Source: Branchiostoma floridae (taxonomy: Eukaryota; Chordata; Leptocardii; Amphioxiformes; Branchiostomatidae). From it: 64,000 nucleotides of DNA. Made by a program: the position numbers and the translations under genes. Below are positions 12,901 to 52,563 of the stretch, piece after piece. Where the stretch lies: positions 10,962,426 to 11,026,425 of the forward strand of contig NC_049985.1 in NCBI RefSeq assembly GCF_000003815.2, read 5' to 3'. Positions within the stretch are counted from its first letter, which is position 1. The number at the start of each line of letters is the position of its first letter. Below the pieces are notes generated by a model. It saw only the letters and a program-made list of their open reading frames with translations, was not told the origin of the DNA and ran no database searches.

Positions 12901-15900
12901 AAGATGTAGCCATGTGGCAAGGACTATAGTAGAGTTTATCAATGCACTGCCATCATCTAAGAGCAGCTATATAACATCAAACATAGGGTCACAAAAAGAT
13001 GTCAACTCTACAATCAACGTCGAAAGCTGTGACATTTGTTGTACACTTGTCACAGGACCAAAATACGGGGCTTTCTTGAGGTACAGTAATCCTTCAGGTG
13101 TGTATCTATCTTTAAGTTGTAGATACTTTTTGGCAGTTAATTTTGTCCCAGTGTGCTTGAAAATGCTATGATATAAATTTGACAATCTACAAGGAACGTG
13201 ATGGCAGCCTTACCTATACAGAGCGTGCAGTACACCACGCAGTCTGGGAACACCCGTGGGAGACGGCTACACTCCACGATGGTGACCTCCAGCTGACCCA
13301 CCGTGACCTTGTTGTCATGGAGATAGACGTCGTCGGGAGCATTCAGCTGCTCCTGATAGTCGAAGAACGGTTTGAAGCGCAGCTTGTAGTACGGCAGGGT
13401 GTGCTTCTTACGGACGGAACGGCGGATCTGGAACAGAAGGGACGATTTTTCTTTTCTTTTCTTAGCACACAACAGGCCAGGTGAAGAAATTAGAAACAAG
13501 TACAGAAATGAAACACAAGATGATCGAATCTGGGCAACAGACTGAGCAATAATGAACCAAAAATCTTCTTGCTGATTTTTCCTGAAATAGAATTATCTTG
13601 ACAGCTCTTAATCAAATTAAATGAATACATTTGTGAATTACAATAAAACTCAACACACCTGGACCAAGGACTTACCTACATGTATCTTGTACCACATTAC
13701 CCTGATTATGAACATCTTGAAGTTCAATATCAAGAAAGAAAACAACAAACCAACCATCCAGGCAACTTACCCACCAGGCCACCAACCATTAATAACCAAT
13801 CATTATAAACAAGGTAGCATTTAGTACTTTTTTAATTACATGACTCAGTCATCACAACAGAAGGTACTTTTCACAGCCAAAGGTAGTGACCTAGAACCTA
13901 TGACAGGATCAACAGGAATGTTCACCTTGTGAGAAAACATTGTCTACAACTGTCTACATTTATGTTGTGTACCCAACAATGCCTAAGGAATGCAAAACAC
14001 ACAAAACTGCAGTCCAGCCAATGGCACAACCATTCCCCTGTTGACGTACATTTGTATTGGTTATGGACTTAGAAGCGAGACAAAGTCATTTGTATCTGTT
14101 AAGGTTTCTTATGAGTGCTTTTGGCTGTGATCCCATATGCATCCTGGCCCTGGATTCTTCCTTTAAGTTAGTAACTTTTAAGGCTGTAAACTTGATACTA
14201 CCTGAGGCATGTAACACGATAGACTGTCCTGGCAGAGGGTTATGCGTTGATTTAACAAAAATTACTGATAGACGTCATTCTCATCTCTACACTTCCGTAT
14301 TTTAGCAACCAGAATTCTTATGTTGTGGTGATGACACTGTGACAGGGTGAAGGATGTTGCTCAAGACAGACTTACTTGTACTAGAGAAGTGCTCAGATTG
14401 AAAGGAAAGATCATTCATAAGGTGTGTGCTTGTCTTCTTAGAAACCTTCCTTTTTTTAAGGTCAATATATGTCTCTAGACATGTTCCTAGAAAATGGATG
14501 AAATATTTGTTTCAGAATAAAATGTCACATACTAGTAGTCAGGGACAAATTAAATGGAAAACAGGCCCTGGGACACTCATTACGAAGGCTTTATCATTGC
14601 AACCACTTTCTGACATTGTCTGACAAGGGATTGTAATAAGTCCACAAATAATTGCTATGTTAAGGATATCTGTTTTTCCATGGTCATTGTATATACAATC
14701 ACTATGATAAAATGGCTACCGGTATAAGACAGTTATGCCAAACCAGTTACTCAAGCAACTTGATATGATTTTGGTAATGGTCAGACATTTCACGTAGAAT
14801 CCACTACAATAACCTTTCCTCAGTCACTATAAGCTTCATTGACAAAAAAAATATTGTAATGTTTATCATAGTTATGCCTTCAGTTTAAACAAATGCCTGT
14901 CAGTTTCCATTAACATTTACTGTTATATCAATTTCTCCAGAACCAGTCAATCTAATGAGTATAAAACTTTCAGTATTCGATAATATCTGACAACTGGAGT
15001 AATTTGCATTGATTTTCTTTGCACCATTGTACAGACCGTGACTCCTTGAACCATGTATTTATTATTCAGCACACATTAGGCAGGCTGTGCTCAGCAGTTT
15101 ATATGAAGCTTGAGGATTTTGGTCAAGGTAGGTGTAAGTCTCAGTTCTCACATTTTTTTAAAGAAAAATAAATCTCTACAAGTACAACTTACAGTACTAT
15201 ACATAAGAGCAATGTTTATCTATATTCTAACAAACTCTCAAGCCAAATGTGTCTGACTTAAAAGGAACTAACATGATCACAGACATCTAATTCAGCATGA
15301 ATGTAAAGCTAGATGTATTACTATTAGGCCAAGACTGTTAACAGAAGACAGCCAGCTTTCTTCAAGAGTCTCAGTGAATGAATTCAATATGAGTACATGT
15401 CAAGCCCATGGTACTTCATTATTTTTCCAGAAAAGATGTCCGCTAAGCTTCAGAAGGTGCTAGTGTTGCTGTTGATGCTCCTGCAGGATTTGCAGCTAAC
15501 AGGAGCATCTTGCAGCTGTTCAGCATCTACCTGCCACTGCGACAGCCAGAGACTTGCCAGCATACCACAGGACCTTCCAGTGTCTATCACATACTTACGT
15601 TTGGAATTTGATAATATTACAGCCTTACGCACTACAGACTTTCCAAGGTACAGAAACTTACACAGCTTATACCTACCAAGAAACCATCTGACTACAATCC
15701 ACAGCAGGGCATTTTACTGCCTGATTAACTTAACAACCTTAGATCTTCGCTGGAACCGTTTGACATGTCTCGGGGCTGAAACATTTATTGGGCTTGGTAG
15801 CCTGGAGATACTTAACCTTGACTACAATGATATCAGTACCATTGAAGAAGAGACCTTCAGTCCAACTCCTCAGCTTGTTGTGTTACTTCTAGGGTCGAAC

Positions 15901-18900
15901 AAGCTGACATCGATCCCACAGGGCAGTTTTAGAGGTCTCACCCAGCTTCAGATGATAGACTTGTTCTCAAACAAAATATCTGAGATTCAGCTGGGCACAT
16001 TCTCAGATCTACCTCGGCTACAACACCTGTACTTGTACCAAAACCGGATAACGGACATTCAACCAGGCACGTTCTCAAATATGACTCAGCTCCAGATTCT
16101 GTCCTTGTTCTTCAACAACATGACTGTTGTTCGGTCAGGCACACTCTCAAACCTACCTCGGCTCAAAGAGCTGGACCTGGACTTTAACCAGATTGCAGAA
16201 ATTCAGCCAGGTGCGTTCTCCAACCTGCCACAGCTGCAGCACCTGGGACTGGGACACAACAGAATGGAGTTCCTTCCCTGGACAGTCTGCTACCAACTGT
16301 ACTCGAGATCTAGATCAGTCCGTGTGACTCTTGACAACAACCCCTGGAATTGTGACTGTAGGATGGTTTCCTCCAAAGTGGAGATGACCAAGTATTGTCC
16401 CTCAGAGACAATAGACCAGATTACATGTGCAGGACCAGCCAAGTTGTACAGACAAAAGCTGCAAGATGTTGCACCTACTGATCTGAACTGTTTAGAACTG
16501 ACTAATGCTGCAGCAGACAAACATAGCTTGCCATGCCACTTTACCTATATGCTGATGTTTTGTGCTTTTGCTGTAGAATTAATAGCTAATTGACATAACC
16601 CTTAAGTGTCAAGTTTGATGAGAAGATAACAAAACCCTCAGTCAAGTCCAGAATTGGACCTTACTTTTTGCACATGTAGCATCATCAACACAATACATGA
16701 TGCAGGCATACCGCATCGGCTACATGTAAGAAAAATCTAGATGTTCAGATGTACACAGTGGAATGTCCCAGCCAGTTGTCAGAATATCTACATCTATAAA
16801 AGGCTTATTCTTTATTTCAGATGACTAATTCAGCCTTGCTAGTATAATTCTTCATCATGGCCAGCATTGTGTATGGAAAAAAAGTACTGGACAGTTAATA
16901 CAATTAAATGTTTTAAGTAACAATTTTTGTAATTGCATTTTTCTTGATTCCATAAGTGTTAGTCAGTTGCTTCAATAACATTAATGTAATCATTTATTTA
17001 TTGTGCACATAATCTGTGTCATGTCCGCCACACACTCAACTGACCTTCAAATCTCAGAACTGCCATATTTTTGTACAGCGACCTAGATACCAGTTTTCAG
17101 TGATCAATTACATTTATCACAAGAAGAATTATACTAATTCATAGAACATGTAAAAATACTAATGTATAAAACAGTCAAATGTTTTGACAATGCCTTGTAC
17201 CAGTTTGTACCATAACCCAGCATTCTTCACATGCATGCATGTGAAACCAAACCTGTGTCACTGTTGTTGTTGTATAAACATAAGGAAACTACTAGTACTG
17301 TAACACCTTTAGAACAGGTGTAACAAGAAAAGGATGTCATAAATATATTACAACTAAAAACAAGCCCACATGGTTTCAACATTTTTGTTCACGCAATACT
17401 AATGCAAAACAATTGACTAAATATATTCAATTTGAAAACCACTCTTCTAACCACTGCTTAAAATACAAACATTAAAACTCTTGAAAGAAAACAAACAGCT
17501 GTTACTTATTCTGGCATGGTCAGTGTGTTACTTAATTACTATGTTGTCTTTAGTTGCTAATTACGGAGTGGACAATACTAGTAAATGACCAGGTGTACCA
17601 GATCCCCCCCCCCACACACACAAACACCTTTGGCGAGACAGACACAATAGGTTGTCAGGTGACATTCTTTGTCCTGACACGCCCCAGTACACCTGAAGCA
17701 GCAGTCACAGAAGGCGGGCGGCATCACACGACGGGAGGGGAAACAGTACGTATCATCTCTATTTTTTTTCATCAGATCTTGTTTCAACAAGATATGATAA
17801 GTCACCTGGACTGACTTGGAATCTGTGGATCCTTGTGACTGTGTATATAGTTGGCAGACAATAGAAATTATGTAGAAATATCATGTAATGGTAATGGTTA
17901 GCACAATTGTTTGTACTACAAAAATCTAACACTAGTCATCTTTAGAACCATCATGGGCAAATTTGACATGTTCAGAAGGAGGTGTTGAAGTTGAAATGTG
18001 ATCATGTTGTATCGTGTAACACTCAGTACATGCTATAAGGTGAGAATGGGGGGCAACAACATTAAATTTTATTATGTGACAGTTGAAAAGGACCCATCTT
18101 GTGTACAATATACTGAAGCTGGGGAGGGGGGCAGGTCAGAGCTTTGGCAGGGGAAAATCACTTAGTTTTGAGCAGAATACCTAAGTTCAAATGACCATTT
18201 AGCCTTCTCACAATGTATGATGCAAAATGCAGATAAAACTTTCCAGTTACTGGTCTAAGACCACTTTAAAAATGTATTTAGCCACCAGCAATCTGTTGCA
18301 ATCTGTGAGCACGTCTGCCTTAATCAAAGATAATGACAAATTGTCACAATTTCTATCTCTTAACATCACGTTGATGGCATACATTTACTGCAAGCCATGT
18401 AAAATTGTCTACACAAAACTGTCAAAATTTAACTATACAAACAAGAGGTCCACTTACTATAAATAGGTACTACATGTAATTTTAGAAGGGTTCTGTTTTC
18501 TACAGACAATGTCCCATTCACACACCAGTCTACAACAGACAACAAACACTTGGCTGGTACAATTGTACATGAAAGACAGCAGACAGCTACACAATTTTGA
18601 TAAACCTCACAGTGATTCTTGAATTGGAACTGTAAAAGGTTTAACAGAGAAGTTTTTCCTAGATGAATCCCGTTTCTTAATTTCACATGACATTACATGT
18701 AAATGTAACATGTACCTTTTGTTCAAATGGTCAGAGCAGAATACCTAGAGTCAAACATACTTTCTCTACAAAAAGTACAATGCATGTAGTTCTTTCTCTC
18801 ATATTTTCTGGAACTGTTAGCCTACTAGCAGAATACATGTTTTCAAAATAACGGATTAAAGCTAACACACTAATGTCTCCAAAGATTTTCAACGTTATGT

Positions 18901-21900
18901 TCTAAACTCTCTTTCTGGACAATATATAAATATACAATCAAATCTGACAAACCTCTATTTCAACAGGCTAGTGTGACGACTTTTTGTGGTTCCTTCATTT
19001 AGTTTTCCCATTGACACAAGCACTAAGAATTCTGTCTGTAGTATAGTGATCACCTGCATAGACCAGATTCCATTTTGTCCCCTAAGTAATCTTATAGGGC
19101 AGTTTTGACTGTTTAAATGCACATTATTTCATTATTTAGCATTTTTAACACTCACTACTTGTCTTTCAGCAGTGATGGCTGCCAGACAACATGTCCCCAT
19201 GGTGCACTTGAGTCTACTACTGCTGTTCATCTGTGCCACCACCAGCGCAGACAACTGCACCTGTACTTCACAATACTTCTGCAACTGCAACAGCAAAAAC
19301 CTGACGGGCGTCCCCCAGTCCCTCAACTCCTTTGTCACCATACTCGGCCTCGGTAACAACCGCATCACCACCCTTGAAAGCGATGACTTGAACAGGTATA
19401 CCCAGCTGGAGCACCTGTACCTGTACGGCAACCGCATGACCACCATTTCTACCGGGGCCTTTAGAAACTTGGAGAAACTGCACGAACTTGAGCTTGAGAA
19501 TAATGAACTTGATGTTCTGAGAGCAGGAGTGTTTCAAGGACTTGGCAGCTTGCATACATTAGAGTTGAACATCAACAAGCTAAGGACAATAGAAGCAGGT
19601 GTGTTTAACTCTCTGGGCTCTCTAGTTGTTCTATATTTACACTACAATGAACTGGAGGTCCTGACACCAGAGATGTTTGATGGGCTGGGCAATCTAAACC
19701 AGCTCCATCTGTACAACAACCTCATCACAACTGTGCATCCCAACACGTTCTCTCACATGACCAAACTGCAGTACCTCTACCTCTTCTACAACAAGATTCA
19801 CACCTTCGACCTCAGCAGTGTTTCTGGCCTGACCAACCTCCGACGGATCTCCCTCTACAACAACAACCTGACATCTGTTCCACAGGGAGATACAACACCG
19901 AACTTACCCGGCATAACGCACTTTAACATGCTCACAAACAACATTGCAGAAATTTCTGCTGACTTCTTTTCTGGGATGGACAATCTGCAATACTTGAGGC
20001 TTTCATATAACAAGATCAGCAATATCCATGAGGATGCTTTCAACACCCTTCACAACTTAAGAGAGCTCTACTTGAATGGGAACAGTCTAAGATCACTAGA
20101 TGGACAGATATTTTCTGGGCTCATAAATCTTCGTTCTCTCTCCCTTGAGCAGAATGAAATAGAATACATCTCGCCTGACGCCTTTACTGGAATGACGGCG
20201 CTTGTCAATCTGAAGCTAGAAGATAACAAGTTGAAGATTTTTCCCGTTGAACCAATGTCAGGGCTACGAGTGTCCAACTTGTACTTGCAAAGAAACCTCC
20301 TCTCAAGCCTGTCGAACATGGCCTACCGTCTGCTGGACCGGACGTCAAGGGTGATTATTCACCAGAACCCCTGGAAATGTGACTGTCGGATGATAGACTT
20401 TCGCAGACTCATGATAGGCCGATCCTTTGAGGACCAGATCGTCTGTGACAGCCCTGACGAGCTGCGTGGAACGTGGCTAAAAGATGTACCACTTTCCAAC
20501 CTTACCTGTGACATCCCTTTGATTGCTTGGTTTGAAAGAACAACCAGAAATCGTCTAGTAGAAGGCAACACCTTACATCTATTTTGTGAAGTCTGGGGGT
20601 TCCAGAACCCAGAAATAACTCTGCGACTACCAAATGGCAAACATGTATCCTCAACACAGGAGCAAACGGGAAGAGTACAAGTCCAGTCCAATGGTACAAT
20701 CACAATACAGGACATTACACAGAAAGATTCTGGGACATATGTCTGCATCGCCAACGGCATAGGAGGGGACACAGAGAAATCGCTGTACATCCCTGAAATA
20801 ATACCCAACCCCTCTGCACTAGTTTCACCCAGCGGAGTCCACATGAGTAAGCTAGCTGGGGGGATCCTTGGAGCTATTGCTGTGGCGGCAGTTGTTGCCC
20901 TTGCAGTGGGTGTAGTCTGGTACAAGAGGAGGGGCACCCAGACAGATGAACAGGTATTGGTAGACAATGCACAGGTAAATGAGACACCTGAAGCTGCAGG
21001 TGAAACAGCAGTGAATGTGGATGGCCAAACAGAAAACACTACCACTGAGAGTCGTGCATGACAAGACTGTTCAAACATTGTTCACTGTGACAGGAACATT
21101 GTGATTGCTTCGAATTTTGAAAAGAACCTCTCTCACAACATGTAAAGTACATTTCCATCAAGACCATATTTTGTACATATCATTATCAGGATATTAGATT
21201 ATACAAGTTTTGCTGTAACCAAGGAGCTTTCATTTCAAAAGAGCAGTAATCAAGTGCAAATTTAGTGCACGGATGTAACCTAATTAGCAGGGAGACAATT
21301 AAACTGACCATTGCTATGCAAGCAAATTTTAGCTTTTATATATACATATCGAATGGGAAAAATACATCTCCAAAATGTGTATGATATGTGTAATATAATT
21401 TCATGTGCCTGACAGTGTATGTTATGCTAAAAGGAAATTATACTATTTGACTTATACAGAATACTGGTACCTTCCAAGATGTAGGTAGACTATATGGTAA
21501 GTTTTATTGTCCATATAAAATGTTTATGTACAGGACATCTATATTCAACCAGATAGGTGTACATTTATGGAAGTAATGGTTGGAAGCTGGTTCTATAACC
21601 TTGTTGGCAGCCTGTGAAGTCTACAACTTGCAGTCTTTTGTTCTAATGCTGTTATATCTTTTTTAATTTCATTGTATCATGCCTAGTTTTTAACAGATGA
21701 AATATTATATACATGTGTGCTGCTGGTATGAGTAACAGTGTTTTACTGATGAACTTTTTTGCAGATTATATCATATATCTACTGTCTTTCCATGTAGACA
21801 GAGAGCAGAGTAAAATTTTAAGTTAGTAAAACCCAGGATCTTCAACATAGCCAAAGTCATGACAGAAATAGAAGACTTGTATGTATACTTTATAACCAAG

Positions 21901-25609: not shown

Positions 25610-30190
<4,581 letters not shown>

Positions 30191-33699: not shown

Positions 33700-34420
33700 G
33701 TTGTTGAATAACCACAGATATACGATGAAAAGAGAGGCCGAAGTCTGCGAGCTTTGTTGATAATTAACTCTAAAAGTCGTCGAAAGGGTGCATAACTTAG
33801 TAAGGGATCTGCGTCATTCTTTCTGTGTGATATGTTTCTCAGTACATTGTACCATCAGTACATTGTAACTCTTTTTGTATTATTGTACTTCTTCCACTAG
33901 ATCTCATATCAGTACCAGATCTTGGTTTTGTTGTTTAAACAGCGTGAATGATTTACTCTGTATACGTTGGTGCAGTGGAAAATAAGAGACAAAAGAACTG
34001 AACAAAATATGATGGGACGCACTGATGGCAGTGATCACTCTTTATTCTTGTCAATGAGACTTTATGATCGTTCATTCAATTTCTTAGTCAGCAGAGGCCA
34101 AATTCTGCTATCCACCCCTGGGGACGTCAGCCCTGTGGACAATATTAGAGTATTAGTCATGTCCCCGTCAGAACAAAACAAGCACAGTATTCTAAAATCA
34201 GTATTACACCCCCTTTCCGCACAAAGGCACGCTATGAGTGACTTTAATCACCCGGCGTTTCTGTGTTGCATTTTTCTATTACACGTAGATACGTTATAAT
34301 TATGTTTATTTACATGTTAAGATTTGTCTATTCATGAGGTTCGTGAGAATTTATGAGGTTATGAAAGCACTATAGCTAGTATAGACTATATTTGCCTATA
34401 TACAGTTGAATGACGTAAGA
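33700..34420. other. Spacer between the unknown plus-strand gene and the apolipoprotein-like gene
   Basis: It probably contains the 3'UTRs of two convergent genes. A 3'UTR intron donor of the minus-strand gene sits at 34429, so its last non-coding exon should lie in or below this region. No other coding signal. Confidence 0.5.
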
Positions 34421-34445: not shown

Positions 34446-37400
34446 TTAGGCAGTCTGGTCAGGCCGGGCTGGCATGAACTGTGTGGGCAGAAATTAGGAC
34501 ACATGTTAACTTTATCATAACCTCAATTATGTTAGAGGTAAGTGGTACCGCAGAACTGAAACATACAAAAATGAGGATTTCCCTTATGAAAAGTACGATA
34601 GACCGACCCCTTCAATTAGCGATTTGTCGAATGATGCCCATGGGCATGCTTCCGTACAGAAAACACCATTGAGCGCCAAAAAAATCCAACGAATCGCTCA
34701 ATTTTCTTTCAGTAAGCGCTCGATGATTTTCTATGGTCGCCATGATGTGCAACCAACTTCGAACCACGTGTAGTTCAAAGCCACCCGCGGAGTTTTTCCA
34801 CAGAAAGAAAAATTCTTTGGAACGGTGGCAATCTCTGAGCGCACTTAGTCTCTACCAGACTCCTATACGTCGCTGAAAACCATAGAACTACGTCGCAAGC
34901 TGTTCCCTAGCCGGCTCATACTCCTCTGGCCGGCTTACTTCTCTATTTGTTCCATTTCTATGGTTTTCCCAGCGACCTATAGGAGTCTGGTAGAGACTAG
35001 AGCGCACTGGCCAAGAGCTAGATTTGGCATACATTTTTGTATGAGTTACGCCCATTGAACCGAGGTTTCCTAGTTGTTAGTAGCCTGAGTATCCTCCTCC
35101 GCAGTGACCGCTGGCTGGTTAGCAACCGAAAGGACGGAGCCAACGGTGACTACGGAGGATGGTACTAAGTTCCGAGGCGCCGGCAGATTAGAAACACTTA
35201 CAGGTGCCACCATGGTGCTGAAGGTGCTGTCCATCTCCGCCTTCATGGTGGTGAACAGAGTCTCGCCCTGTCCGGCAAACGCCCTCAGGACTTCCCTCTC
35301 CTGGGGGTTGGCGAGCTGTGTGTGACATACAGGAACACATCATACAAAGTTAACACCCATGCGTTATACGGCGGGACAGAGTGCTGACGAATAGACGTCG
35401 TGTTATTCTTAAAATGACCTGTTAACCTCTTTCTAGAAGACTTCGATCGCAATATCTTTCCATTTGTAGTAGTAGGAAAGATACACAAAGTTGTATTGTC
35501 AAAAAATACTCCTATCAGCCCTGATATCAGTTACAGTGTCATGATACGAAACAATTCTGTCTAAGGTCTACGCTAACCAAGAAAAATCCATGCATATTAA
35601 AAGAAAGGCACATAAAGAGAAAGTTGGTAGTGGACAAAAACGTAACCTGACTTGGCAATTTAAGACCAGCTATGATAGATAAATAAACTTTCAACGTTTT
35701 CATTAGAAAAAACACGAAAACACGATATCGACAGTGTTACATTCTGCACGTACCGGGACGATACGCTCCACGAAGAAGCGGCGAGCCTTACGCCACCCAT
35801 CAACCAGCTGGTTGTCCACAGCGCTCAGCCCCCTCACGAGGTCCTCCTGTAGAAGGAGAGGGGGGCATCGTTAGCAAACCCGCCACACTCAACCATGCTG
35901 ATATTCTAATTCACTAGCATGCTGTGTGCGTGTTGTAATCAAGAAAGAAAAGTGTGACTACTGTACAATACTAGCATGAAAGAACCATAGTTTCAAGTCA
36001 TTCCCAAATGGGATCTTTTTTTTTCAAATTCTGAGTGAAAATAGCTGAATTTGCTCCTAAGCAAATACCGGCCTGTCTAGTTCATAAATCATTCTTTGAC
36101 ATGGCATAGGCAAACACATACCCTCCGCTGCATATTTTATGCAAATGCTTAGCCACCTGTTAGCCTTCTAAATAAACGATGCATTTCGTGTCTTGAACTT
36201 TTGTGTAACGGGTCAGTCACCTTGAGGAAGGTGATATTATGTCGGGTGGAGGATCGTAACACTTTTTGGGGTGCCAGAACTATCTTGTAACCATCTACCA
36301 TAATGAGGCGACTGTCAGAGCTAGAGAAGCCAGCAGTCAGAAATCATTACGATCTTCCATCCAACATCTGAGATTGGTACAGACAGCAAAAAAATATGGC
36401 ATTTAAGTACAACCATTATTGAGTACTAAAGGAGTTCTCTCAATGGACTTGCGTCATTGTTTTGTTATTTTCTCTAATTTTTTTTTATGATTTAGATATG
36501 GCGTAATACGTAAAAGTATGACTTAGAAGACGACAGAATACACGTTCTCTGAAATTCGTTGAGTATCTTTCGAACCCCGCAGTGATGCAAGTGCAGTGAG
36601 TGTGCACCTTAAGTACAATGTATCACTGAAAACACAAAAGGGCAACCTCAAGAGAGAGAGAGAGAGAGAGAGAGAGATGGGGCGAGAAGGAGACACTGAG
36701 CATATGGTCTAAACACACTAGCTACATACATCGTTGTCCTTGTGAAGCTTGAAGAATTCAGTCCACCTCTTGAAGGCAGACATGCTGCTCTCCTTGATCT
36801 TATCATTCATGGTCTTGACCTTCGCACGAACGTCGCGGCTCAATTGCTGAAAAAAAGATAAATTCGTCTTTTTGACATGGAGCATGTATGTAAACTTAGA
36901 GTAGATTTAAACTAGTCCAACTAAAATATCATAATCTCCAGGAAGATTTACAGGTGGCATAAGATATTATTAAAGCTGGCCGAGGAGTAAAGTTGGCCAA
37001 AGGGAGTCACTGGTAGATCTGCCTGGAGATTATACAATATAAGGCTCTGCCAAACCAGACCAAGATTTCCACTTTTGCGGGCGGGGCCTCTAACCAGTTG
37101 TCATGCCAATCAGAAAACCGCTTCAATGTTTTCTTAAGGTAAGGCTGATTTTCTTATTGACTGACAGCTGATTAGAGGCCAAGCCAACAAAATTGGAAGC
37201 CTGCAGTGGAATCCTCAGCCCGGTTTAGCCTAGAGCCTCCCCAGGGTACATTGCATACATCTATAGGCCGAGAGTGAGGCTTTGGGTGGGAGGGTGGTAT
37301 CTGGGTGCTACTTGTACGAACTACATTTGGAACAACAAAGTATAGAGTATGTGTGACGTTGCCTTACGTCCTTGATCTTGTCGTCATACTCGGCGCGCAG

Positions 37401-40400
37401 CTGGAAGGTGACCTCACGCAGCTTCTCACCCATCAGGATGGAATACTGCTTCACGGAGTCGGCAAATGGAGACAGGCCCTGTGGGGAGGCATAAATACAT
37501 CATGGACTCGGGCCATTGTACTTACAGGCGGTCGTATGCAATGTTATACTAGTAATACGGAAAAGGGGTATAGTAGTAGTAGTCCACTGTGATGCAATGA
37601 TCTGGACACCCTGAAACTGCGATCAGTCTTTCTTCACTTCCTGAAGGCGGTATCTCACTGCACTTGGAAAACAAGAAAATACACAAAACGTAATAACATT
37701 TCGTTCTTTGTCTCTGAAATTCGAAAATGTCTCGAACCCACATTGCCGCACCGATGCCCCAAGTGCAGTGAGATAACGGTATCACCTTTAGCTCTCCTAG
37801 TTTACATTCGTAAAATGTAGTTATCCATTGCGATATATTACGCTAAAACGGGTTGTGAATGCTACATACGGTTTCGGCATCGGACAGGGCCTGTGCCTCC
37901 GCCTGCAACTGCAGCATGGTCTGAAAAAAAGGAAAATGTATGTGTACTGTATGTATTTGTACGTTGTTATTTTACAAAACAGGGAAGTAAGAAGAATTTG
38001 CACTGTAACTCTGACATTAGTGAACTAAGTGATAGGCCGAAAATGTAGGATGTATCAGTCATTTTGGTCAAGATTATCAAATAGTAATTCAAGCTCAGCA
38101 AGCCGCAGGAAATTTTAACTCATGTTTAAAACTGAGAAAAAGAATGAAGGATGACATAGTTCGTAGGCTGCCTCTAAACATCTTTTGAGACAGATAACCA
38201 AAAGTTATTGATCATGGGAAATGCAAAGGCTGTATAGCGGTCGGATTTAGGCGTACCGGCTTCAGGTGGCCGTCAAAGAAGGTGGCGAAAGAAGCCTGCA
38301 TGGTGGCGGCCTGGGCGGACAGGGTGTCCCAATAGCTCCTCATGACGCGGCGCTCATGGGCAGTCAGCAGCTGGAACAGACAATTTGATTTCCTTAAGGA
38401 AGACATCCAAGATCTCACACCCTCGTGAAATATGTCGAGTTTTATGAATTTCTTTCATTATATTTCAGCCATACCATAGGTATGGTGAAATATATTGTAT
38501 TCGTAATGTTTCTTCTTTCTTCTTTCTCCTGTCAAATCTTCAAATTGATTCATCTCCGTTGTTCCTGAACCGAATGGCCTGAAATTTGGCACAAGGGTAG
38601 AGTGGGCCAATACCTTGATGCTTTTTTTTCATTTTTTCCATATCTGCCTTTAAAATGATTTTATTAATGTTTTTTGCAATTTTTATATATATTTTGCCCC
38701 CCTGTACCCTGGTATTACAGCCGAATGACCTGAAATTTGGTACAGAGGTGCCTTGATCATATGCCCACAAAGATCCAATAACAGTTTTGGCATACGGTAC
38801 AACAAAATGCTTAATTTTGACATTTTTTGCCATTTTTTCCCAAAAAAATGACATTTTTGGCTCCTATACCCCCATTTTACAACCAAATGATCTGAAATTT
38901 GTAATAGAAGTGCAATTTACATATGCGCACATGGGTTCAATAACTTTTTTGGCATACAGTACAACAAAATGCTTAATTTGGGGATTTTTTGGCCATTGTT
39001 TGACCAAAACCGTACGCTTTTGGCTCCTGTTCCCTGGTCTTATAACCAAATGACCTAAATTTTGGTCAATAGGTGCACTAGATATTCATTCAAATGACCA
39101 ATGTATAATTTCTGGCATAAACCACTTCAAAATGATATATTTGGGGATTTTTTTGGTAATTTTCCACTGGCCAGAGGGTCAACGACCTCAAGGTCGTTGA
39201 CCTCTCCCACCTGAAGGCAACATGTGCACACAGTGTCTATATATACTAGTAACTTGATTAAAGAGGGAACCAATCACGTAGCCTGAGTCAACATCCCGAA
39301 GGATATTGGCAGCCAATCAGTGAGCCTGGTGTTATCTGGAAGAGTCCATTCTGGCACGGAGGGGGAACATTTTTTTTAAATTCATCTTTGGACTGTTGAT
39401 TACATAAAGTCTCTCAGTGGGAGTATTTTTGAACTAGTCTATTTTGCAATTTCACATTGGGTGTACGGGAAGAGTCCATTCTTGCACGGAGGGGGCATTT
39501 AAAAAAATTCGTTTATGGACTTTGGTGATTTGATATGTCAAAGTGTTTCAGTGTGGTTATTTTTTGACTGGTGTATTTTGTAATTTAACGTAGGTTGTGC
39601 TGGAAGAGTCCATTCTTACATGGAGGGGGATTTTTAAAATCCATTTTTGGGACTTTGGTGATTACTCCAAGTCCAATTTTAGCGGATGTATTTTTGGATA
39701 GGGGCATCGCAAGAAGAGTCCATTCGTGCATGGGGATGTTTTCAAATTTAGTTTTAAAGGGGTGATGATTCAATATTCCATTTTTAGCGGAAGTGTTTTT
39801 GGACTTGTCTATTTTACCTTTTCATGCCTTTTTTGCCTAGTTCAACTTTGGACTGGGTTGTTTATTAAATCAAAAGGCCATGTTTTCAGTGGGAGTATTT
39901 CTAGACTGGTCTATTGTGCAAATTCACATGGGGTGCGCTGGAAGAATCCATTCTTGCACTGGGAATTTTGTAAGATTCATTTTTGGGTGTCATTAAGTGT
40001 CATTAGTAGAATTGACGTTTAAACAAAAGTGTTCCATTTTTGCACATGGGTGATTTTGGAATAGTCTATTGTTGCATGGGCAGGGAGATGGCTGAAATAT
40101 GCTGTATTTGCTCTCAAGCAAATGTCGGCTTTTCTAGTTAATATTATTGGATTGTTTCATTCATTAATGCAAATTTCTCGCTAATCCTGTGACGTGTCTT
40201 TGCATTTTCCTGCCTACTTTGGACCCAGGCCAAGCCTGTGGCATCAACTTTGGGCCCGGGCCAAACCAGCTTCCAATCCTGCAAGTCTCCAATTACACCG
40301 TTTTTCGTCTCACATCCTGCAACTCCGGAATATTAGTATTCAAATAACTGCGAACACACACTAGGACAAACGAACACACAGAAAATAGCACCCCCGTCAT

Positions 40401-43400
40401 GGAAGTAATCATTACTGGCACTAAATCTAGTGAATAATAGTAACTGATTAATGGCTAATACTGAGTTGAAATTGGTCTTGATTCTAATTTGTGACGATGC
40501 TCCCGTTCTTACTATCGCAAATACATTATGAAAGTGTACACGTCAATGGAAACTTCATTCACTCATTCATTCACTCTTACCGGCTTGATCTGGTTCTGGT
40601 AGTAGTTCTGGGCCTCTCCGTGAGCGCGGGCCATCTTGGCACTGTATCCAACCAGAGCACGTGCCAGTCCCCTCTGTGAAAATGCAAAAACAATGCGTCT
40701 TTTATGCGTTTATCTGAGACATTGAAGAAAAGTTAACGCAACATAGCAAAACAAATATCACCAAATGCATCAATTGACAAACTAGAGTTCGGTGACCTCA
40801 TATCTCCATGAAATATTTAGACCTTTTATATGTTTTAGTCAGACTATTATGCAAATGACATACACATTTGCATGATTTATGCATGGTGGTGTTCATCATT
40901 GCCTAGCTTACGCACGTAACAAGTAAAAAAAAAACCAATCATATATCATTAAGCGCTTTAGCTATTTTTGGATTAATTATGCAAATTAGCATCTGTTTAT
41001 GTTCCACCAGTCATGAATTATATGTGTTACTTTATTGAAGTGCAGTCATGGAAAACAATGATTCAAATTAAGTTACATTTGCATAACATTCACGTCATTG
41101 TGTACATCTTTGCCTAAGCTACCTGCGTGCGCAATATGGCCACAACTTAGCAATTTTGTGATATCTATCTTTCAATGCGCTAATATGGATGTTGGGATTT
41201 CCGTATATGTTCTATATATAAGCGCATACTCACGTCGTTCTCCCTGTTCGCCTGGTAAGTCGCCTTCCACTTGTCGGACAGAACGGCCATCTTGGCGTCG
41301 ATGCGGTCGGCAGAGTTCCTCAGCTTCTGACGGATCTCGGGACGCAGTTCCTACAACATGGGACAAACAGCCAACTGTAATCGTAAGGCGCGATCGGTAA
41401 GACCTAACCCGAACCCAAAGGTCCCCGGTTTAAAACCGTTGATGTGCCTTTGGGAAAGTCGCTTTACTTCACTTTCCTCACTTCACTCAGTTGTAAATGA
41501 GTACCTAACTTCGGTTTTCTCACCTCGAACAGTATTCTTTTGCATTCATGAAGACATCAGTACATATATAAAAACTGTAGTGTCTGTTTCTATTTTGTCA
41601 AACAGAAAACTTATCATTCTATGAAAGTTTTGTGCTAGTATTTATCTTTACCCAAGCAAGGAGTTTTGCAATCTTTTTTATGACTTTTTTTTTCACCCTG
41701 TCGCTACGTATTTTTCTGAAAAGAATGCAAGGATTAACAAATCAAATTGTTGTGGGCTTACATCCTTGATCTTGTCCGTAAACTCGCCGGCAGCCATGAC
41801 GCGGAAGCCCCGCATGGATGTAGCGACCAGCTCCGTGTAGGCCCGAACCTCGAGCGCGAACGGGGTCGGCTCCTATAGGAGGGGACACGGCAAAATTAGA
41901 CGTCTGGGGGAGCCAGACTTTCGGATGGTGACCTAAACTTAAGCCAGCGGTCCCGTGCACGAGGGAGCGTATGGCACCAAACCTCTGAACTCATCAAGAT
42001 TCGAAGTGTATGGATGGGCCTACGTCACATTCCCCAAACGGGAACAGCTTTGGGGAACGAAAAGTATGATATAAAAGACACCAAACTAGACAAGAAGTAA
42101 ACAAAATAGTCGTTGGCATTATTTGTGTATATTTCTACGTATACATTTCTACTTTTCGTTTCCATTAATAGCCCGGCCCGGCCCCGGTTTGGAAATGTGG
42201 CGTTAGCCGGACCCGCCGGTGTGCTTGTCTAAAGATGCAAGTCGTTGCATGGCTGCATATGCATTCACATATAGTTAGAAATAATACTCAAGTTCCATTC
42301 AGGGATGTGGGTCACTTTTCATCGTAATCGGGGATGGCAGACTTCACTCCAGACGATGAGCGCCCTCTTGCAGAACATACAAAACCTGCACTCCGCCCTA
42401 GATTTCATCCCGGGTGAAAGTCCATTTGGAGAGACTATGTGCTATTAGCCTCTATAGCAGACTGTACTGCGGCATACGTTTTGGTAAGCATTTTGATGTC
42501 ATTGTATCAGTCACATGAGAGGTAAAGCCTGCAAAAGAGACTACTGTTTATCGACTCCACAGAGGGGCGTGGCACCCAGTGATAACCTTTTATCGTTTCC
42601 TGCTGGTATTTATTTTGAAACATCCGTTACTCTTTCCGTCTCCTCCCATCATATTTACCCCTAAGGTTACACAGGTGGCGATTCTCACGGACCGAAGCCG
42701 GTCATGTCTTTAGACTTGCCAGAAGTATATTTCATGTTGGAATATATAGGAGCAATACCAACAATTAACTAGATTCACCTAAATCACCTAAATGAAATTT
42801 GCTCTCTGCATGCGATTTTTAAACAACTTATTGCTTTGTTAAAGCGCAGTCACATAGGTCGTGCGATCGTCGTACGATTTTGATGCTAATACCCGCCTCA
42901 CATTAGGCGCGATTCGATCGGACGACGAGTCTGCGAGCTCTAATTTACGAGGAGGCATGACCCTGATTCCGACGAAGAAATGGCAGAGTTCCCCCTTCCC
43001 GCCAGGGCCATGCCTCTTCGTAATTTAGAGCTCGCAGAGTCGTCGTCCGATCGAATCGCGCCTAATGTGAGGGGGTGTATAAAAGGATTTCAAACAGGCT
43101 GTGACAGAACCAACCACCGACATTGATCCAAAACTTTGCAGGAGACGTACATTTATGTCCTCCAAAATGCCCAAAGTTAGTGATCGCACGAAAATCCTAG
43201 GACCTATATGACCGTGCCATTAGACTTTTAGAGCTTACGTTCAAAGCGATGGTTTTTCGGATATGAACTCTATAAGAACATGAAAGGTCTGTAATGTATA
43301 CATAGGAAGGAGTGAAAATAGGCTGGTGCTCCAAAACTTGCGTGTAAATATATTTAATGCAATATTTAACAGCAACGATCGTTCATCGTTTTTTTTACAT

Positions 43401-43589
43401 TCCATAACTTTTCACTTCTATATATTACAGCTTACCTATAACCTTGACATAACCTAATGTACAAAATGAACACAAATGTATGTATACAAAGCAATTTAAG
43501 AAATTTTGAAAAAAAAAAAGAATATAGAAGTCCAAACGTACCGCCTGCACATAGACGGCAGCGAGCACCACCAACAAGAACACCTTCAT
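34446..43589 (-). CDS. Secreted amphipathic-helix protein, apolipoprotein A/E-like, with duplicated four-exon cassette
   Basis: Exons, 5' to 3': 43589-43542, 41872-41762, 41350-41234, 40673-40581, 38370-38257, 37920-37870, 37478-37368, 36846-36730, 35846-35754, 35315-35202, 34478-34446 (TAA). All are phase 0; total 333 residues. Exon 1 is exactly a signal peptide (MKVFLLVVLAAVYVQA). Exons 2-5 have 37, 39, 31 and 38 codons, and exons 7-10 again have 37, 39, 31 and 38. Paired exons share residues (EFTDKIKD / EYDDKIKD; RENDR / HKDNDE; PLLTAHERRVMRSY / PLANPQEREVLRAF). The mature protein lacks cysteine and is almost all charged amphipathic helix, as in exchangeable apolipoproteins, which coat lipid particles. 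Orthology to apoA-I/apoE or apolipophorin III is not provable here; the function is an inference. Confidence 0.8.
34843..35004. mobile_element. Palindromic TIR element (TCTCTACCAGACTCCTATA)
   Basis: Left end AGTCTCTACCAGACTCCTAT, right end ATAGGAGTCTGGTAGAGACT, about 160 bp with inverted inner segments. The same TAGTCTCTACCAGACT end recurs near 56717, 56849 and 61639, marking a family. Confidence 0.85.
36655..36676. repeat. (AG)n microsatellite
   Basis: A GA run of about 22 bases in an intron of the apolipoprotein-like gene. Confidence 0.9.
36932..37034. mobile_element. Short TIR element (AATCTCCAGGMAGAT)
   Basis: Ends ATAATCTCCAGGAAGATTTA and CAGATCTGCCTGGAGATTAT are inverted repeats, with GGTGGCATAAGAT inside. 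The same inner motif and similar ends flank the gap at 58490-58690. Confidence 0.75.
38540..39170. repeat. Satellite-like array, about 160-170 bp unit
   Basis: Three to four diverged head-to-tail units, each with AATGACCTGAAATTTGG, then GCATACNGTACAACAAAATG, then CTTAATTT and TTTTGGCTCCT. Lies in the intron between exons 40673-40581 and 38370-38257 of the apolipoprotein-like gene. The apparent open frames are A/T-run artefacts. Confidence 0.85.
39339..40095. repeat. Second satellite-like array, about 110-135 bp unit
   Basis: Units are marked by GGAAGAGTCCATTCTTGCA(C/T)GG at about 39340, 39467, 39602, 39712 and 39941, with TTTTTGGACT and GTCTATTTT between. Adjacent to, but different from, the array at 38540-39170. 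Confidence 0.8.
40781..41130. mobile_element. Truncated copy of the ACTAGAGTTC element
   Basis: Starts ACTAGAGTTCGGTGACCTCA and follows the 5' part of the element at 6328, then stops near exon 41350-41234 of the apolipoprotein-like gene. Confidence 0.75.
42891..43080. mobile_element. Fold-back (long inverted repeat) element, full copy
   Basis: Two nearly perfect inverted arms of about 65 bp (CCTCACATTAGGCGCGATTC ... GAATCGCGCCTAATGTGAGG) separated by a short centre. A copy with a truncated second arm lies at 53611-53755. No ORF. Confidence 0.9.
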
Positions 43590-43968: not shown

Positions 43969-44015
43969 CTGCACAGTGAGCCTCGGAGCGAACGATGTGA
44001 AGGGACGGGGGAGAG
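43969..44015 (-). other. Candidate 5' non-coding exon of the apolipoprotein-like gene
   Basis: GTGCAG/GTATGT on the minus strand at 43969/43968 is a strong donor. The coding exon is preceded by TTTCTCCAG/TTCAGAATG at 43595. With the TATA box at 44043-44049, transcription should begin near 44015. Confidence 0.6.
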
Positions 44016-44042
44016 TAACTTTCTACCGCGAAGACACCAGCC

Positions 44043-44086
44043 TTTATAGGCATGAAGACGCCCAACCAAAGCCATTGTCTGTTTAC
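44043..44086 (-). promoter_or_regulatory. TATA box and forkhead-type site of the apolipoprotein-like gene
   Basis: On the minus strand CCTATAAAGG lies about 30 bp before the predicted start site. TGTTTAC (44080-44086, plus-strand reading), the core of FOXA/HNF3 sites, lies about 35 bp further upstream. A core promoter with TATA fits a highly expressed tissue-specific gene. Confidence 0.6.
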
Positions 44087-48621: not shown

Positions 48622-51600
48622 GCAGGGTTGTAGCCAGCCTGAAATCATTTTCAGTCCCCTTGATTTTGAATGGGCATGGTGTGACATTGCGCGTCATTTC
48701 TAGGGGGTCTGACTCCCAGAAAATTTTTAAATCAAGACCCTCTGAAACACTATTTCCTGCATTTTGAGGTGCAAATTTTGCTTGTAGACTAAGCTGTTCA
48801 ATGGCATCTGTTTTGGTGAAGAAGAACACATGGGTTTCAGTTTTTTCCATATCTTTACATATCGATTTGTCTGTCCCAGGGGACGGAATGGGGAAAACTT
48901 TTTTCAGTCCCCAACTGCAAAATTCCTTCAAAGGACTGAAGGACAGGTGCTGGCTACAACCCTGCTTGCAAGTGATGCAGCACAGTCCCCCTGGCCTATG
49001 CCAGAAGAAAAAGTAAAGAATCACAGCATGTACAAAATGTACCTGTTGAGCATAACCCATAGCAGCAGGCGTGGCAGACTCTGGCACTGTGCTGACCAGG
49101 TCTGCTTCAACGGGGGCTTCTCTGGCAAGCTGTCGGCCACAGCGCATCCGAACTGAGTACACCATCTGACCTGGAGGGTAACATACAAAAGTAACTTATA
49201 ACTTTATCCATTTCATATTGCCCAGTGCTACATCATCTGCAAGTCAGATTTGGAAGTTTGGAAAGACAGTTTGGCAACTTAGGAAAAACAATTCAACCTT
49301 CACATTTGTAATCGCCTACAAAAGCTATGAAATACATGGATAGCACACGATAGGTTGCACATTTCAGCAACATGTTGCATTTTGAATCCTAATATGCAAC
49401 TGATTAAAGATGTTTCCTGGAACACCTTCAAAACATTGTTTTTGAAACTAAGAAAACTGAAAAAGAGTGTTGCAGGTAAACTTCAAGTGGTGCAGGTAAT
49501 TCAACATTGTTACTTGCACTTAATAATAATAATAATAATAATTGAGTCCTACAAATGAAACTTGAATGTATAAAATCACACCCTTTACAACCAAAGTTCA
49601 GTGGGCTTGCTGCTATATGTCAATCTTACCTTCCATGACAGAGTCAGCTCTTGCGAAGTACACATACTCAAAGATACAAAATGCAGGAGGATCCTGGTTG
49701 GGTCGTGGTACAACACAGACGGATTCCACGCCGTCCCTGGTGACTCTGACGATCTCTCCGGGTTCGACTTCTCGGTGATACACCGCTCCGAGAGACTGGA
49801 AGGAGCAGGACTCTGATGACACTACCCAGCCTTCTACGTCTTCTGATACGCTGTCATAGCCATTTTTAACTGGTGGGAAGACAACGTAACTGATTTTAAT
49901 ACAGATGTTGACACAGATGTTACCTCTGACATGTTTCATCCAGCTTGCCAGATACTTAAACCTGAAAGAAGCCACCTGAACTTGAATTTGTATATATAAT
50001 TTGAATGGTTAATGATATCACATTATACACCTGTAACACATTATTAAAAATGTGATATGTAGTATTACTAGTAAACGTTGAACTTCTTTGTTCAGTTTAT
50101 TAATATATTTGAACAATGTTTACCTGTATTAATTCCAATATTATGTTGAAAATACCGGTATCCTGTTTTTTAGTTTTACAGTCAAACCTGTATTAGCGGC
50201 CACCTCTGCATACCGGCCACCTGCCCATAGTGGCCACATTTTAGCGGTCCCTTGGATTCGTAATGATTAAGAAATAGGCTTAGCGGCCACCTGTCCAACG
50301 CGGCCACGGCCACACGATTTTCGGTCCCGCAGGTACAAAAACACTGCCGATTACGGCCACGCGGACCGCTGATCTATGTTTCGGCACGCGTTCGGCCATA
50401 TACAGCGGCCGTATCGTCATCCTACGCCGGATTTAAAACCTCTTTGATTTATTTTCAAAACAAAACTTCGTCAACTGGCGCTACCCATACCCGCTGACAA
50501 ACGAGGTCATATAAGGTCAATAGACGACACCAATATTACGGATTATTGTGTTAAAGTTACGTTCTAATACACTATCGCTGAGGTTAATTTACATCACAAA
50601 AACTTTCTAAAAAATAAATTGTTACAAAGACAAAATGATATGAACTTCAGACTATGGTGGATTTTATTCTTAGATTTATAAAGAGATAAGTCTAAAATGA
50701 CGAGACTTTTCTTGTGAGTACCACATTAGCATAATGGGCGAATCTGACGTGTGAACGCGAAAGATCAAAGAAATATGACGATAACGGTCTCTTCAAACAA
50801 TATCAACTGTAGAACATTTAAAACTTTTTATAGCTTTTGTTTTCTTAATACATATAGTGTAAAACCATTGCAGTACATGTACAGTACTGTATTATGTGAA
50901 TAAAGATCAGTGGGTCCTAAAACCATGTGTAACTTATTGCTTGTGGTCAATTAATTAGCATATTCTCTATAGTGGCCACCTCTCTATAGTGGCCAATTTT
51001 GACCAGTCCCTTGAGTGGCCGCTATAGACAGGTTTGACTGTACATCTTCAAAGTGTATTTGTTGGATTACTTTGGCTGACATCTAAAAAGAACATAGTGT
51101 GTATATCATTCATTGACCTGTACTGACCTGGATTATTATAGCTGACCCCTGACATCAACCTGCCTATACACAAAGGTCTGTTTCCGTACGGATCTCTAAC
51201 AGCGTACAAACACTCCCCCGTCATGATGACCAGCGAGTACGACATTGGTGTTTCGTTCATGACGTTACGGATGCGGGCCTGCCAATCAGGGCCGTCAGGC
51301 TCCCCGTCTGATGGGATGGAACAGAGGAGCTGCGTGATGACCTCACTGTCCGATCCTGTGGAAAGGCCGATGCCACGCTTCATCACCTAGGAACAATAGA
51401 AGTAAAGCAGGATGGGGATTGTAAATAGAGAACACAACATTCCCTAGGTACCAGCCTGATAGTAGGTCGACGCACCTAACAGACAGAGGGTGACCCTACC
51501 TGGGACTGAAGGTAGGGGTAGGTACTGGTACAGAAAATTCAGTTACAGATACGGTCCAGGTCCAGAGGTTCAGGTCCAGGTCCGGACTTGAACCTGGACC

Positions 51601-52563
51601 TGTATGTACTTATCTATGAATGTAACTTGTGGATGGGCGATACAATGGTCCATTTCACCACAAAGGATTTCTGTTTGGTGGAGCATCTGACATCAATTGA
51701 CATTTCAAAATCTTATACCTGAGTCATGTAAACAACACTAACTGCCTCTGTTCTTACCACACTAATAATTATAGAGTATAAAATGACACAAACCTTTTGT
51801 CTCAAGGGCCCAGCATTGACCAGTTCCCCGTTATGTGCCACGGCTATCTTCCCGTGTATGGTGTCCACCACAAATGGCTGACAGTTCACTAACTCCGAGA
51901 ACCCTGCCGTGGAGTAGCGTGTGTGTCCGATGCCCAGGTTTCCTTTCATTTTCCCAAGAGTTTCGTCTGTGAAGATGTTGCTGACCATTCCCATGCCCTT
52001 ATGTCTCGCCAAGATGTCATCACCCTTGCCTCTACTCGTGACGATCCCAGCACTTTCCTGTCCCCTTGTTTAAAAAGAAATGAACATGTAATCTGATAAA
52101 TATCAAAATCCTTACTCTGTAGCTGAGAACAAAAAAAGTAAATAGATATTTATGAATGCTCACACTAAATTAATGGAGTCATACGATTAACATTTATACC
52201 AATAATTCAACTCTCCATATGACTTTTGTATTCCTCACATCTATTATGATTGCACTCAAATGGCTTCAAATGACTTGTTACATTGCCCAGAAAAGTTACT
52301 ATTTCAAACCGCTTACATACTGTAACTAGCTGCCCCCCTCCCCATACCCAGAGAGAAAGGCGACTGACATTCACAAGACAACAAACCGCTGAATGATATT
52401 TGTCAAATTCTCCCTACCTATGTTGTAAGCCTACAAGTCCCAGGCATATAACATGCCCCACGTCTAGCTGTGTGGGCCAGTCTCCGGCAGCCACACAGGC
52501 GAACACGCCACACTTCTCATCCAGCCCCCCCTCCTCTTCTACAAGCGCTTCCATGTCAGCCAT
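47532..52563 (-). CDS. PPAT: Amidophosphoribosyltransferase (glutamine PRPP amidotransferase), seven exons
   Basis: Catalyses PRPP + glutamine to 5-phosphoribosylamine, the committed step of purine synthesis, in the cytosol. Exons: 52563-52418, 52064-51794, 51386-51128, 49869-49630, 49170-49043, 48305-48084, 47792-47532. They give 1527 nt, 508 residues plus stop, in phase throughout. A 17-residue propeptide precedes the catalytic CGVFAC (Cys18 after processing). The glutaminase signatures [10 protein letters not shown] and [10 protein letters not shown], the PRPP loop [13 protein letters not shown] and the C-terminal [17 protein letters not shown] are all present. The four Fe-S cluster cysteines expected for this class are present: [14 protein letters not shown] and the HCTAC pair. 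Vertebrate PPAT has 517 residues. The upstream frame is open before the ATG, but the ATG at 52563 sits where a short propeptide is expected. Confidence 0.96.
48584..48615. repeat. (CA)n microsatellite
   Basis: A CA run of about 32 bases in a PPAT intron, directly before the TIR element at 48624. Confidence 0.95.
48624..48966. mobile_element. TIR element, GTTGTAGCCAGC family (PPAT intron)
   Basis: Begins GCAGGGTTGTAGCCAGCCTG and ends GGTGCTGGCTACAACCCTGC, with good inverted ends. It is related to 24044-24297 but has a longer interior. Confidence 0.8.
50177..51042. mobile_element. Non-autonomous Tc1/mariner-pogo-type element in a PPAT intron
   Basis: The ends are TA-CAGTCAAACCTGT...ACAGGTTTGACTG-TA, perfect over 13 bp and extending through TTAGCGGCCAC / GTGGCCGCTATA. 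The TA on both sides is the target duplication typical of this superfamily. About 866 bp, no transposase frame; AGTGGCCAC-type subrepeats cluster at both ends. Confidence 0.88.
51500..51770. mobile_element. Dispersed repeat, second copy (PPAT intron)
   Basis: Begins GGGTAGGTACTGGTACAG and shares ordered blocks with 47105-47522 (ATGGGCGATACAATGGTCC, TTTCTGTTTGGTGGAGCATC). Immediately precedes PPAT exon 2. Confidence 0.75.

What the first reader, a model, noticed from the sequence alone, without database searches (positions are those of the whole stretch)
34446..43589. Secreted helical protein built by duplication of a four-exon cassette (37-39-31-38 codons, twice)
Exons 2-5 and 7-10 have exactly the same codon counts in the same order, all phase 0, separated by one 17-codon linker exon. 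Paired exons still share residues at matching places (DKIKD ends of the 37s, ND ends of the 39s, I-x-P ends of the 31s, HERR/QERE starts of the 38s). This shows an ancestral one-cassette gene duplicated as a block of four exons. Vertebrate exchangeable apolipoproteins grew by 11/22-residue repeats inside one large exon, so a multi-exon cassette route to a similar helical protein would be a distinct architecture.
Basis: partly seen in the sequence, partly recalled or inferred. Interest (0 to 1): 0.82.

Follow-up and report, generated by a model that had tools for sequence, protein, structure and literature searches.

The report
Amphioxus two-block helical secreted protein
A lancelet gene for a small secreted all-helix protein, probably one that coats fats in body fluid, was made by copying a run of four exons that each seem to encode one helix, which is a different way of building such a protein from the one used by vertebrates.

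Summary
On the minus strand, eleven coding exons (34446-43589) splice into a 333-residue protein with codon counts 16, 37-39-31-38, 17, 37-39-31-38, 10, every junction phase 0 and AG/GT. The 145-residue halves align without a gap: 37/145 identical, BLASTP E 2e-20; none of 20,000 within-exon shuffles or 20,000 exon rotations reaches the score. So the block duplication is real homology. Each exon looks like one helix: all 9 prolines of the eight cassette exons lie within 4 residues of an exon end, and the two exons modelled are single helices. The apolar face repeats every 3.68-3.71 residues, near human apoA-I (3.676), but the 11/22-residue sequence repeat is absent, the class-A charge layout is absent and PF01442 is not reached (12.4 of 90 bits). 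Best reading: an exchangeable-apolipoprotein-like lipid-surface protein of Branchiostoma, possibly the published B. belcheri 'ApoA-I', which I could not check. No paralogue was found by searches of limited reach. Gene anatomy and duplication are shown; function is inferred.

The parts
43969..44018 (-). probable first, non-coding 5' UTR exon (upper end approximate), TATAAAG box at 44042-44048 upstream
   Evidence: sequence read directly: TATAAAG, donor GTATGTG after 43969; no transcript evidence
43542..43589 (-). coding exon 1: signal peptide, 16 codons
   Evidence: MKVFLLVVLAAVYVQA, phase-0 donor GTACGT; signal peptide judged by eye, no predictor run
41762..41872 (-). coding exon 2: cassette A, unit 1, 37 codons
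   Evidence: open, AG/GT, phase 0; 13/37 identical to exon 7
41234..41350 (-). coding exon 3: cassette A, unit 2, 39 codons
   Evidence: 8/39 identical to exon 8, 20/39 positive
40581..40673 (-). coding exon 4: cassette A, unit 3, 31 codons, last codon Pro
   Evidence: 6/31 identical to exon 9
38257..38370 (-). coding exon 5: cassette A, unit 4, 38 codons, last codon Pro
   Evidence: 10/38 identical to exon 10
37870..37920 (-). coding exon 6: linker, 17 codons, no Pro or Gly
37368..37478 (-). coding exon 7: cassette B, unit 1, 37 codons
   Evidence: modelled as one helix, residues 4-36, mean pLDDT 95.1
36730..36846 (-). coding exon 8: cassette B, unit 2, 39 codons
35754..35846 (-). coding exon 9: cassette B, unit 3, 31 codons, last codon Pro
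35202..35315 (-). coding exon 10: cassette B, unit 4, 38 codons, last codon Pro
   Evidence: modelled as one helix, residues 4-35, mean pLDDT 86.4
34446..34478 (-). coding exon 11: 10 codons (FMPARPDQTA) and stop TAA
   Evidence: acceptor TTCTGCCCACACAG
34305..34310 (-). AATAAA polyadenylation signal
   Evidence: read directly

Best explanation
A Branchiostoma gene (probably B. floridae) for a secreted, Cys-free, basic, helical protein (317 residues mature) that works like an exchangeable apolipoprotein. Shown: exon anatomy, block duplication, prolines at exon ends, amphipathic period near 11/3. Inferred: an ancestral gene had a 5' UTR exon, a signal-peptide exon, four one-helix exons and a short last exon; the four-exon block was copied in tandem, for example by unequal recombination in introns, which keeps the frame because every junction is phase 0; the old tail or a new exon became the 17-codon linker. 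Inferred mechanism: in solution the helices of each cassette fold against each other on their apolar faces; at a lipoprotein, membrane or bacterial lipid surface they open on the proline joints and lie flat with the apolar face down. The second cassette doubles the lipid-binding length. Defence against bacteria is a plausible second role.
For: Exact exon-length order and phase in two blocks with BLASTP E 2e-20 between them. Exons = helices: 9 of 9 prolines of the eight cassette exons within 4 residues of an exon end (exact chance 8e-7; 6 of 6 distinct alignment columns, 8e-5); one unbroken helix in each of the two exons modelled, of eight. Apolar-face period: mature protein 3.683 residues per turn, 0 of 4,000 shuffles on each of three scales; column mean of the halves 3.70, 0 or 8 of 3,000 shuffles by scale; human apoA-I 3.676 with the same code. 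No Cys, no N-glycosylation sequon, 36.2 kDa, pI 9.2. The only Pfam match listed for the first half is PF01442, weak (E 0.13). Genome 513,431,437 bp in 431 contigs, recalled to fit the B. floridae reference.
Against: PF01442 far below its 90-bit cut-off; not listed for the whole protein at E 10 or for half B. A PF01442 match is cheap: it rings in 13 of 14 control genomes. No residue-level 11/22 repeat (lag z 1.7 and 0.3; apoA-I 3.0 and 3.5). No class-A charge split (p 0.19; apoA-I 0.0007). Alignments with apoA-I are at chance (half A by BLASTP E 0.13; two-row profile probability 2.3%, E 0.021). Half A alone has a weaker period (138 of 3,000 shuffles reach it on one of two scales) and its lag-11 signal is only z 1.3-1.8. 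Register of the apolar face across exon junctions inside a half is marginal (exon-rotation p 0.03-0.13). Plain hydrophobic moments do not beat shuffles in any of exons 2-11. No lipid, expression or secretion data.
Confidence: 0.55

Rival explanations
1. A secreted structural or ligand-binding double helical-bundle protein unrelated in action to apolipoproteins: two stable four-helix bundles joined by a 17-residue linker, for example a body-fluid carrier, cuticle or egg-coat component.
For: Apparently one helix per exon, four per cassette; charges lack the apolipoprotein class-A pattern; no credible family match.
Against: Apolar period near 3.69 rather than the 3.5 of left-handed coiled bundles; over the mature protein lag-7 autocorrelation is about zero and lag-11 z 3.2. 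No Cys to fix a rigid extracellular bundle.
Confidence: 0.25
2. A host-defence protein: a basic amphipathic helical protein that binds bacterial surfaces, with lipid transport secondary or absent.
For: pI 9.2. B. belcheri 'ApoA-I' is reported to bind LPS and LTA, to act on Gram-negative bacteria and to rise after LPS (statements in PMC7431520 and PMC9331387, passages; the original was not readable).
Against: No evidence that the window gene is the orthologue of that protein; a basic amphipathic protein may act on bacteria without that being its role.
Confidence: 0.12
3. The halves look alike only through helix composition, and the equal exon lengths are coincidence or a gene-model artefact.
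For: Helical proteins share composition; no transcripts were available here.
Against: 0 of 20,000 shuffles, 0 of 20,000 rotations, class-preserving z 6.0 (0 of 5,000), no gaps in 145 positions.
Confidence: 0.01

Closest known systems
Vertebrate exchangeable apolipoproteins APOA/C/E (Pfam PF01442)
   Same: Secreted, Cys-free like human apoA-I, helical, apolar face repeating every ~3.68 residues, Pro at helix joints; a non-coding first exon and a signal-peptide exon resemble the vertebrate layout (that likeness is recalled, not tested).
   Different: Not a detectable PF01442 member; no 11/22-residue repeat; eleven coding exons, against three introns in most vertebrate members with 22/11-codon changes in exon 4 (PMC6854765, passages); grew by copying a block of four exons; no class-A charge pattern.
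Insect apolipophorin III
   Same: Secreted exchangeable lipid-binding protein made of long amphipathic helices; first coding exon short and within the signal peptide in Anopheles stephensi (PMC5383653, passages).
   Different: Five helices and a gene of two exons, 45 and 540 bp, so the helices share one exon; its Pfam family is not listed; no internal block duplication known to me (recalled).
Branchiostoma belcheri ApoA-I (Wang, Qu and Chen 2019, CBPB 238:110329)
   Same: Probably the same genus; could be the orthologue. Cited as LPS- and LTA-binding and antibacterial.
   Different: Sequence not available here, paper not held; in PMC7431520 it is placed apart from the vertebrate apolipoproteins in a tree (section 18).
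Lamprey LAL1/LAL2
   Same: Helical apolipoproteins of the HDL fraction without the full apolipoprotein domain (PMC7431520, section 18 and passages).
   Different: lal2 is reported without introns there; no sequence comparison made here.

Membership tests
Vertebrate-type apolipoprotein A1/A4/E family (PF01442) | Profile match over the curated cut-off (90 bits) | tested here: not met
   Half A 12.4 bits, E 0.13; not listed for half B or the whole protein (HMMER's filters drop most matches above E 0.1)
Vertebrate-type apolipoprotein A1/A4/E family (PF01442) | 11/22-residue sequence repeats | tested here: not met
   Lag-11 z 1.7, lag-22 z 0.3; human apoA-I 3.0 and 3.5 in the same test
Vertebrate-type apolipoprotein A1/A4/E family (PF01442) | Amphipathic helix with period near 11/3 | tested here: met
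   3.683 (whole), 3.70-3.71 (halves; half A weak on one scale); apoA-I 3.676
Vertebrate-type apolipoprotein A1/A4/E family (PF01442) | Class-A charge layout (bases near the apolar face, acids opposite) | tested here: not met
   p 0.19; apoA-I p 0.0007
Vertebrate-type apolipoprotein A1/A4/E family (PF01442) | Three- or four-exon gene, 33-codon block in exon 3, repeats in the last exon | tested here: not met
   Eleven coding exons; vertebrate layout from PMC6854765 passages; the 33-codon block was not searched for separately
Vertebrate-type apolipoprotein A1/A4/E family (PF01442) | Reversible lipid binding | not testable with these tools
   needs protein
Insect apolipophorin III | Profile match to the apoLp-III family | tested here: not met
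   No match listed at E 10 in Pfam scans of the whole protein and both halves
Insect apolipophorin III | Five-helix up-and-down bundle that opens on lipid | not testable with these tools
   Only single exons were modelled
Orthologue of B. belcheri ApoA-I | Sequence orthology | not testable with these tools
   Paper not held; no amphioxus protein set available

The most novel reading that the evidence does not exclude
Cephalochordates built an exchangeable-apolipoprotein-like protein on their own, by tandem copying of a block of four one-helix exons, so that intron positions mark the helix joints. This is a route separate from the 11/22-codon changes inside one exon in vertebrates. Or, equally bold, this is the intron-rich ancestral layout from which the single-exon vertebrate array was derived by intron loss and repeat homogenisation.
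Probability: 0.3. Interest if true: 0.7.

Novelty: new variant of a known kind. Interest (0 to 1): 0.5.

Why it matters
Where vertebrate exchangeable apolipoproteins came from is, to my knowledge, unsettled, since their short helical repeats lose sequence signal quickly. A gene in which exon borders still mark the helices, and in which two copies of the unit can be aligned without gaps, gives fixed landmarks (intron positions, phase, helix lengths) that can be compared across chordates even where sequence similarity has gone. It makes 'common origin or convergence' testable by intron position rather than by noisy alignments of amphipathic helices.

Tried and rejected
Chance likeness of two helical halves: rejected by shuffles, rotations and class-preserving shuffles.

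Coherence of the apolar face over the whole protein as proof of one long belt: weakened. Whole-protein exon rotations reach the peak in only 5, 17 or 23 of 4,000 by scale, but that peak (3.683) coincides with a harmonic of the 162-residue repeat length (162/44 = 3.682), so the halves are not independent; inside halves the cross-exon coherence is marginal (exon-rotation p 0.03-0.13).

Amphipathicity by plain hydrophobic moment: none of exons 2 to 11 beats its shuffles.

Class-A helix type: looked suggestive on the wheel counts but not significant.

PF01442 hits elsewhere in the genome: 57 matches listed, none over the cut-off. Of the best seven I looked at five: four (L008, L009, L011, L012) lie in short tandem repeats and one (L006) is a LEA-like low-complexity protein. 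L007, L010 and the 50 below were not looked at.

Paralogue search: protein searches with half B and half A plus linker returned only this gene's exons plus one chance-level match each (E 1.57 and 4.18; neither inspected). Neither half found the other half's exons, so relatives as distant as the halves are from each other would be missed. The pattern DKIKD-donor gave 3 genome hits, two of them own; the third has a stop codon 10 codons upstream of the motif. Exon-pair profiles on the window plus 40 kb of flank: the eight own exons (which match by construction), next best E 0.53.

Only exon 7 (with exon 2) and exon 10 (with exon 5) were modelled. No fold search was run: a lone helix would match anything.

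Of no use: a bacterial-type promoter and terminator scan (nothing found); Rfam and tRNA scans of the window (no match).

Literature: nine searches listed no title or abstract start that describes this exon block; I saw capped listings, and most subscription papers are not held.

Full report
What is there. The gene is on the minus strand. Its coding exons run from 43589 down to 34446 with codon counts 16, 37, 39, 31, 38, 17, 37, 39, 31, 38, 10 and a TAA stop; every intron between them is AG/GT and phase 0, and the sum is 333 residues. Alternative acceptors or donors are open at some exons, so the set is the consistent one, not one proven by transcripts. The ten introns between coding exons are 336 to 2210 bases. 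Upstream lie TATAAAG (44048-44042) and a likely 5' UTR exon; downstream AATAAA (34310-34305). The mature protein (317 residues if cleavage follows exon 1, which I judged by eye) has no Cys and no N-glycosylation sequon, 36.2 kDa, pI 9.2.

Is the repeat real. The halves (exons 2-5 and 7-10) align over 145 positions without a gap, 37 identical; BLASTP covers 143 of them with 68 positives, E 2e-20. The BLOSUM62 score is 163 against a mean of -112 for shuffles within exons (z 11.8, 0 of 20,000), with 0 of 20,000 per-exon rotations, and z 6.0 (0 of 5,000) when the pattern of residue classes is kept. All four exons score best with their own partner. Nucleotide identity is 203/435, about equal at the three codon positions, so I take the event to be old. 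The four exons inside a cassette do not resemble each other (local scores 13-27, the same as between unpaired exons of the two halves, 12-25), so I see no sign that the cassette itself arose from one repeated exon.

Exons and helices. Nine prolines fall in the eight cassette exons, all within 4 residues of an exon end: chance 8e-7, or 8e-5 counting each alignment column once. The measure 'within 4' was chosen after seeing the data. Models of exon 7 (with exon 2 as second sequence) and exon 10 (with exon 5) are one helix each, residues 4-36 and 4-35, mean pLDDT 95.1 and 86.4. The other cassette exons were not modelled on their own. A short peptide alone is easily modelled as helix, so this speaks against a hairpin inside an exon more than for any fold of the whole.

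What kind of helix. Hydrophobicity has a peak at 3.683 residues per turn over the mature protein on three scales (0 of 4,000 shuffles each); human apoA-I gives 3.676 (0 of 1,000) and the window's LRR protein a weaker peak at 3.448 (26 of 1,000 shuffles reach it). Since the two halves are homologous, the whole-protein peak counts the same signal twice. Separately: half A 3.70-3.71 (3 or 138 of 3,000 shuffles reach it, by scale), half B 3.70 (0 or 3), column mean 3.70 (0 or 8). Lag-11 autocorrelation over the mature protein is z 3.2 and lag-7 about zero, unlike a heptad coiled coil; half B alone gives lag-11 z 3.2, half A only 1.3-1.8. Results against an apolipoprotein: residue-level repeats at lags 11 and 22 are absent, the class-A charge layout is not significant, alignments with apoA-I are at chance, and hydrophobic moments of exons 2-11 do not beat shuffles.

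Family searches. Pfam: no credible match of the whole protein (best DUF1016_N, E 0.048, 14.2 of 32.8 bits); half A is matched only by PF01442 at E 0.13, half B by DUF1016_N (E 0.011) and NAAA-beta (E 0.077), all weak. PDB: none for the whole protein at E 10; the two-row profile gives two chance-level hits, E 1.5 and 2.4. NCBIfam: four matches far below their cut-offs, best E 0.0039.

Genome context. The window is C7:10962426-11026425 of an assembly of 513,431,437 bases in 431 contigs; the size fits, from memory, the B. floridae chromosome assembly, and the name is given by no tool. Of nine neighbouring pieces scanned with Pfam, six had matches: two LRR proteins, two TMEM185-type pieces and two glutamine amidotransferase-type pieces, one of the latter below its cut-off; from the ORFs I take these last to be amidophosphoribosyltransferase. 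None of the nine suggests a gene of the vertebrate APO clusters, but I made no systematic synteny test.

Copies elsewhere. None found by protein search, by the DKIKD-donor pattern or by exon-pair profiles over window plus 40 kb. The protein searches could not detect the gene's own other half, so a paralogue as old as the internal duplication could be missed.

Prior knowledge. Most vertebrate APO genes have three introns, and changes of 22 and 11 codons in exon 4 are described (PMC6854765, passages). Mosquito apoLp-III has two exons, and apoLp-III five helices (PMC5383653, passages). An amphioxus ApoA-I is cited as antibacterial and LPS-induced (PMC7431520 passages and section 18, PMC9331387 passages); the original could not be read. 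If that protein is the orthologue of this gene, the protein is known and only its exon-block anatomy would be new; the listings of nine searches of the held library named no paper describing it.

Verdict. The most likely reading is a lancelet exchangeable-apolipoprotein-like protein with a gene architecture distinct from both vertebrate and insect counterparts. It does not qualify as a member of PF01442 by the tests made. Function remains inferred.

Noticed in passing
window 42893-43075: Inverted repeat with 73-nt arms, 93% complementary, 37-nt spacer, in the intron between coding exons 1 and 2; looks like a small foldback/MITE-type element.
   Followed up: no
window 34846-34999: Inverted repeat, 30-nt arms 97% complementary with 94 nt between, in the last intron.
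   Followed up: no
window 38570-40086: The 2.2-kb intron between exons 4 and 5 holds two diverged tandem arrays of different sequence (spacings 151-163 and mostly 110-134 nt).
   Followed up: no
window 15382-16593 and 19109-21061: Two single-ORF leucine-rich-repeat proteins on the plus strand, the second with an Ig domain and, by eye, a transmembrane tail (PDB relatives).
   Followed up: partly
window 26580-28374: Pieces of a TMEM185-type (Tmemb_185A) gene, plus strand.
   Followed up: partly
window 51048-52069: Minus-strand pieces with glutamine amidotransferase matches (one over its cut-off), probably amidophosphoribosyltransferase (the name is my reading).
   Followed up: partly
L006 1276-2595: 439-codon open frame of Lys/Glu/Ala-rich LEA-like repeats, the best PF01442 match listed in the genome (E 1.9e-9, 45.5 of 90 bits); no clear signal peptide seen by eye.
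   Followed up: partly
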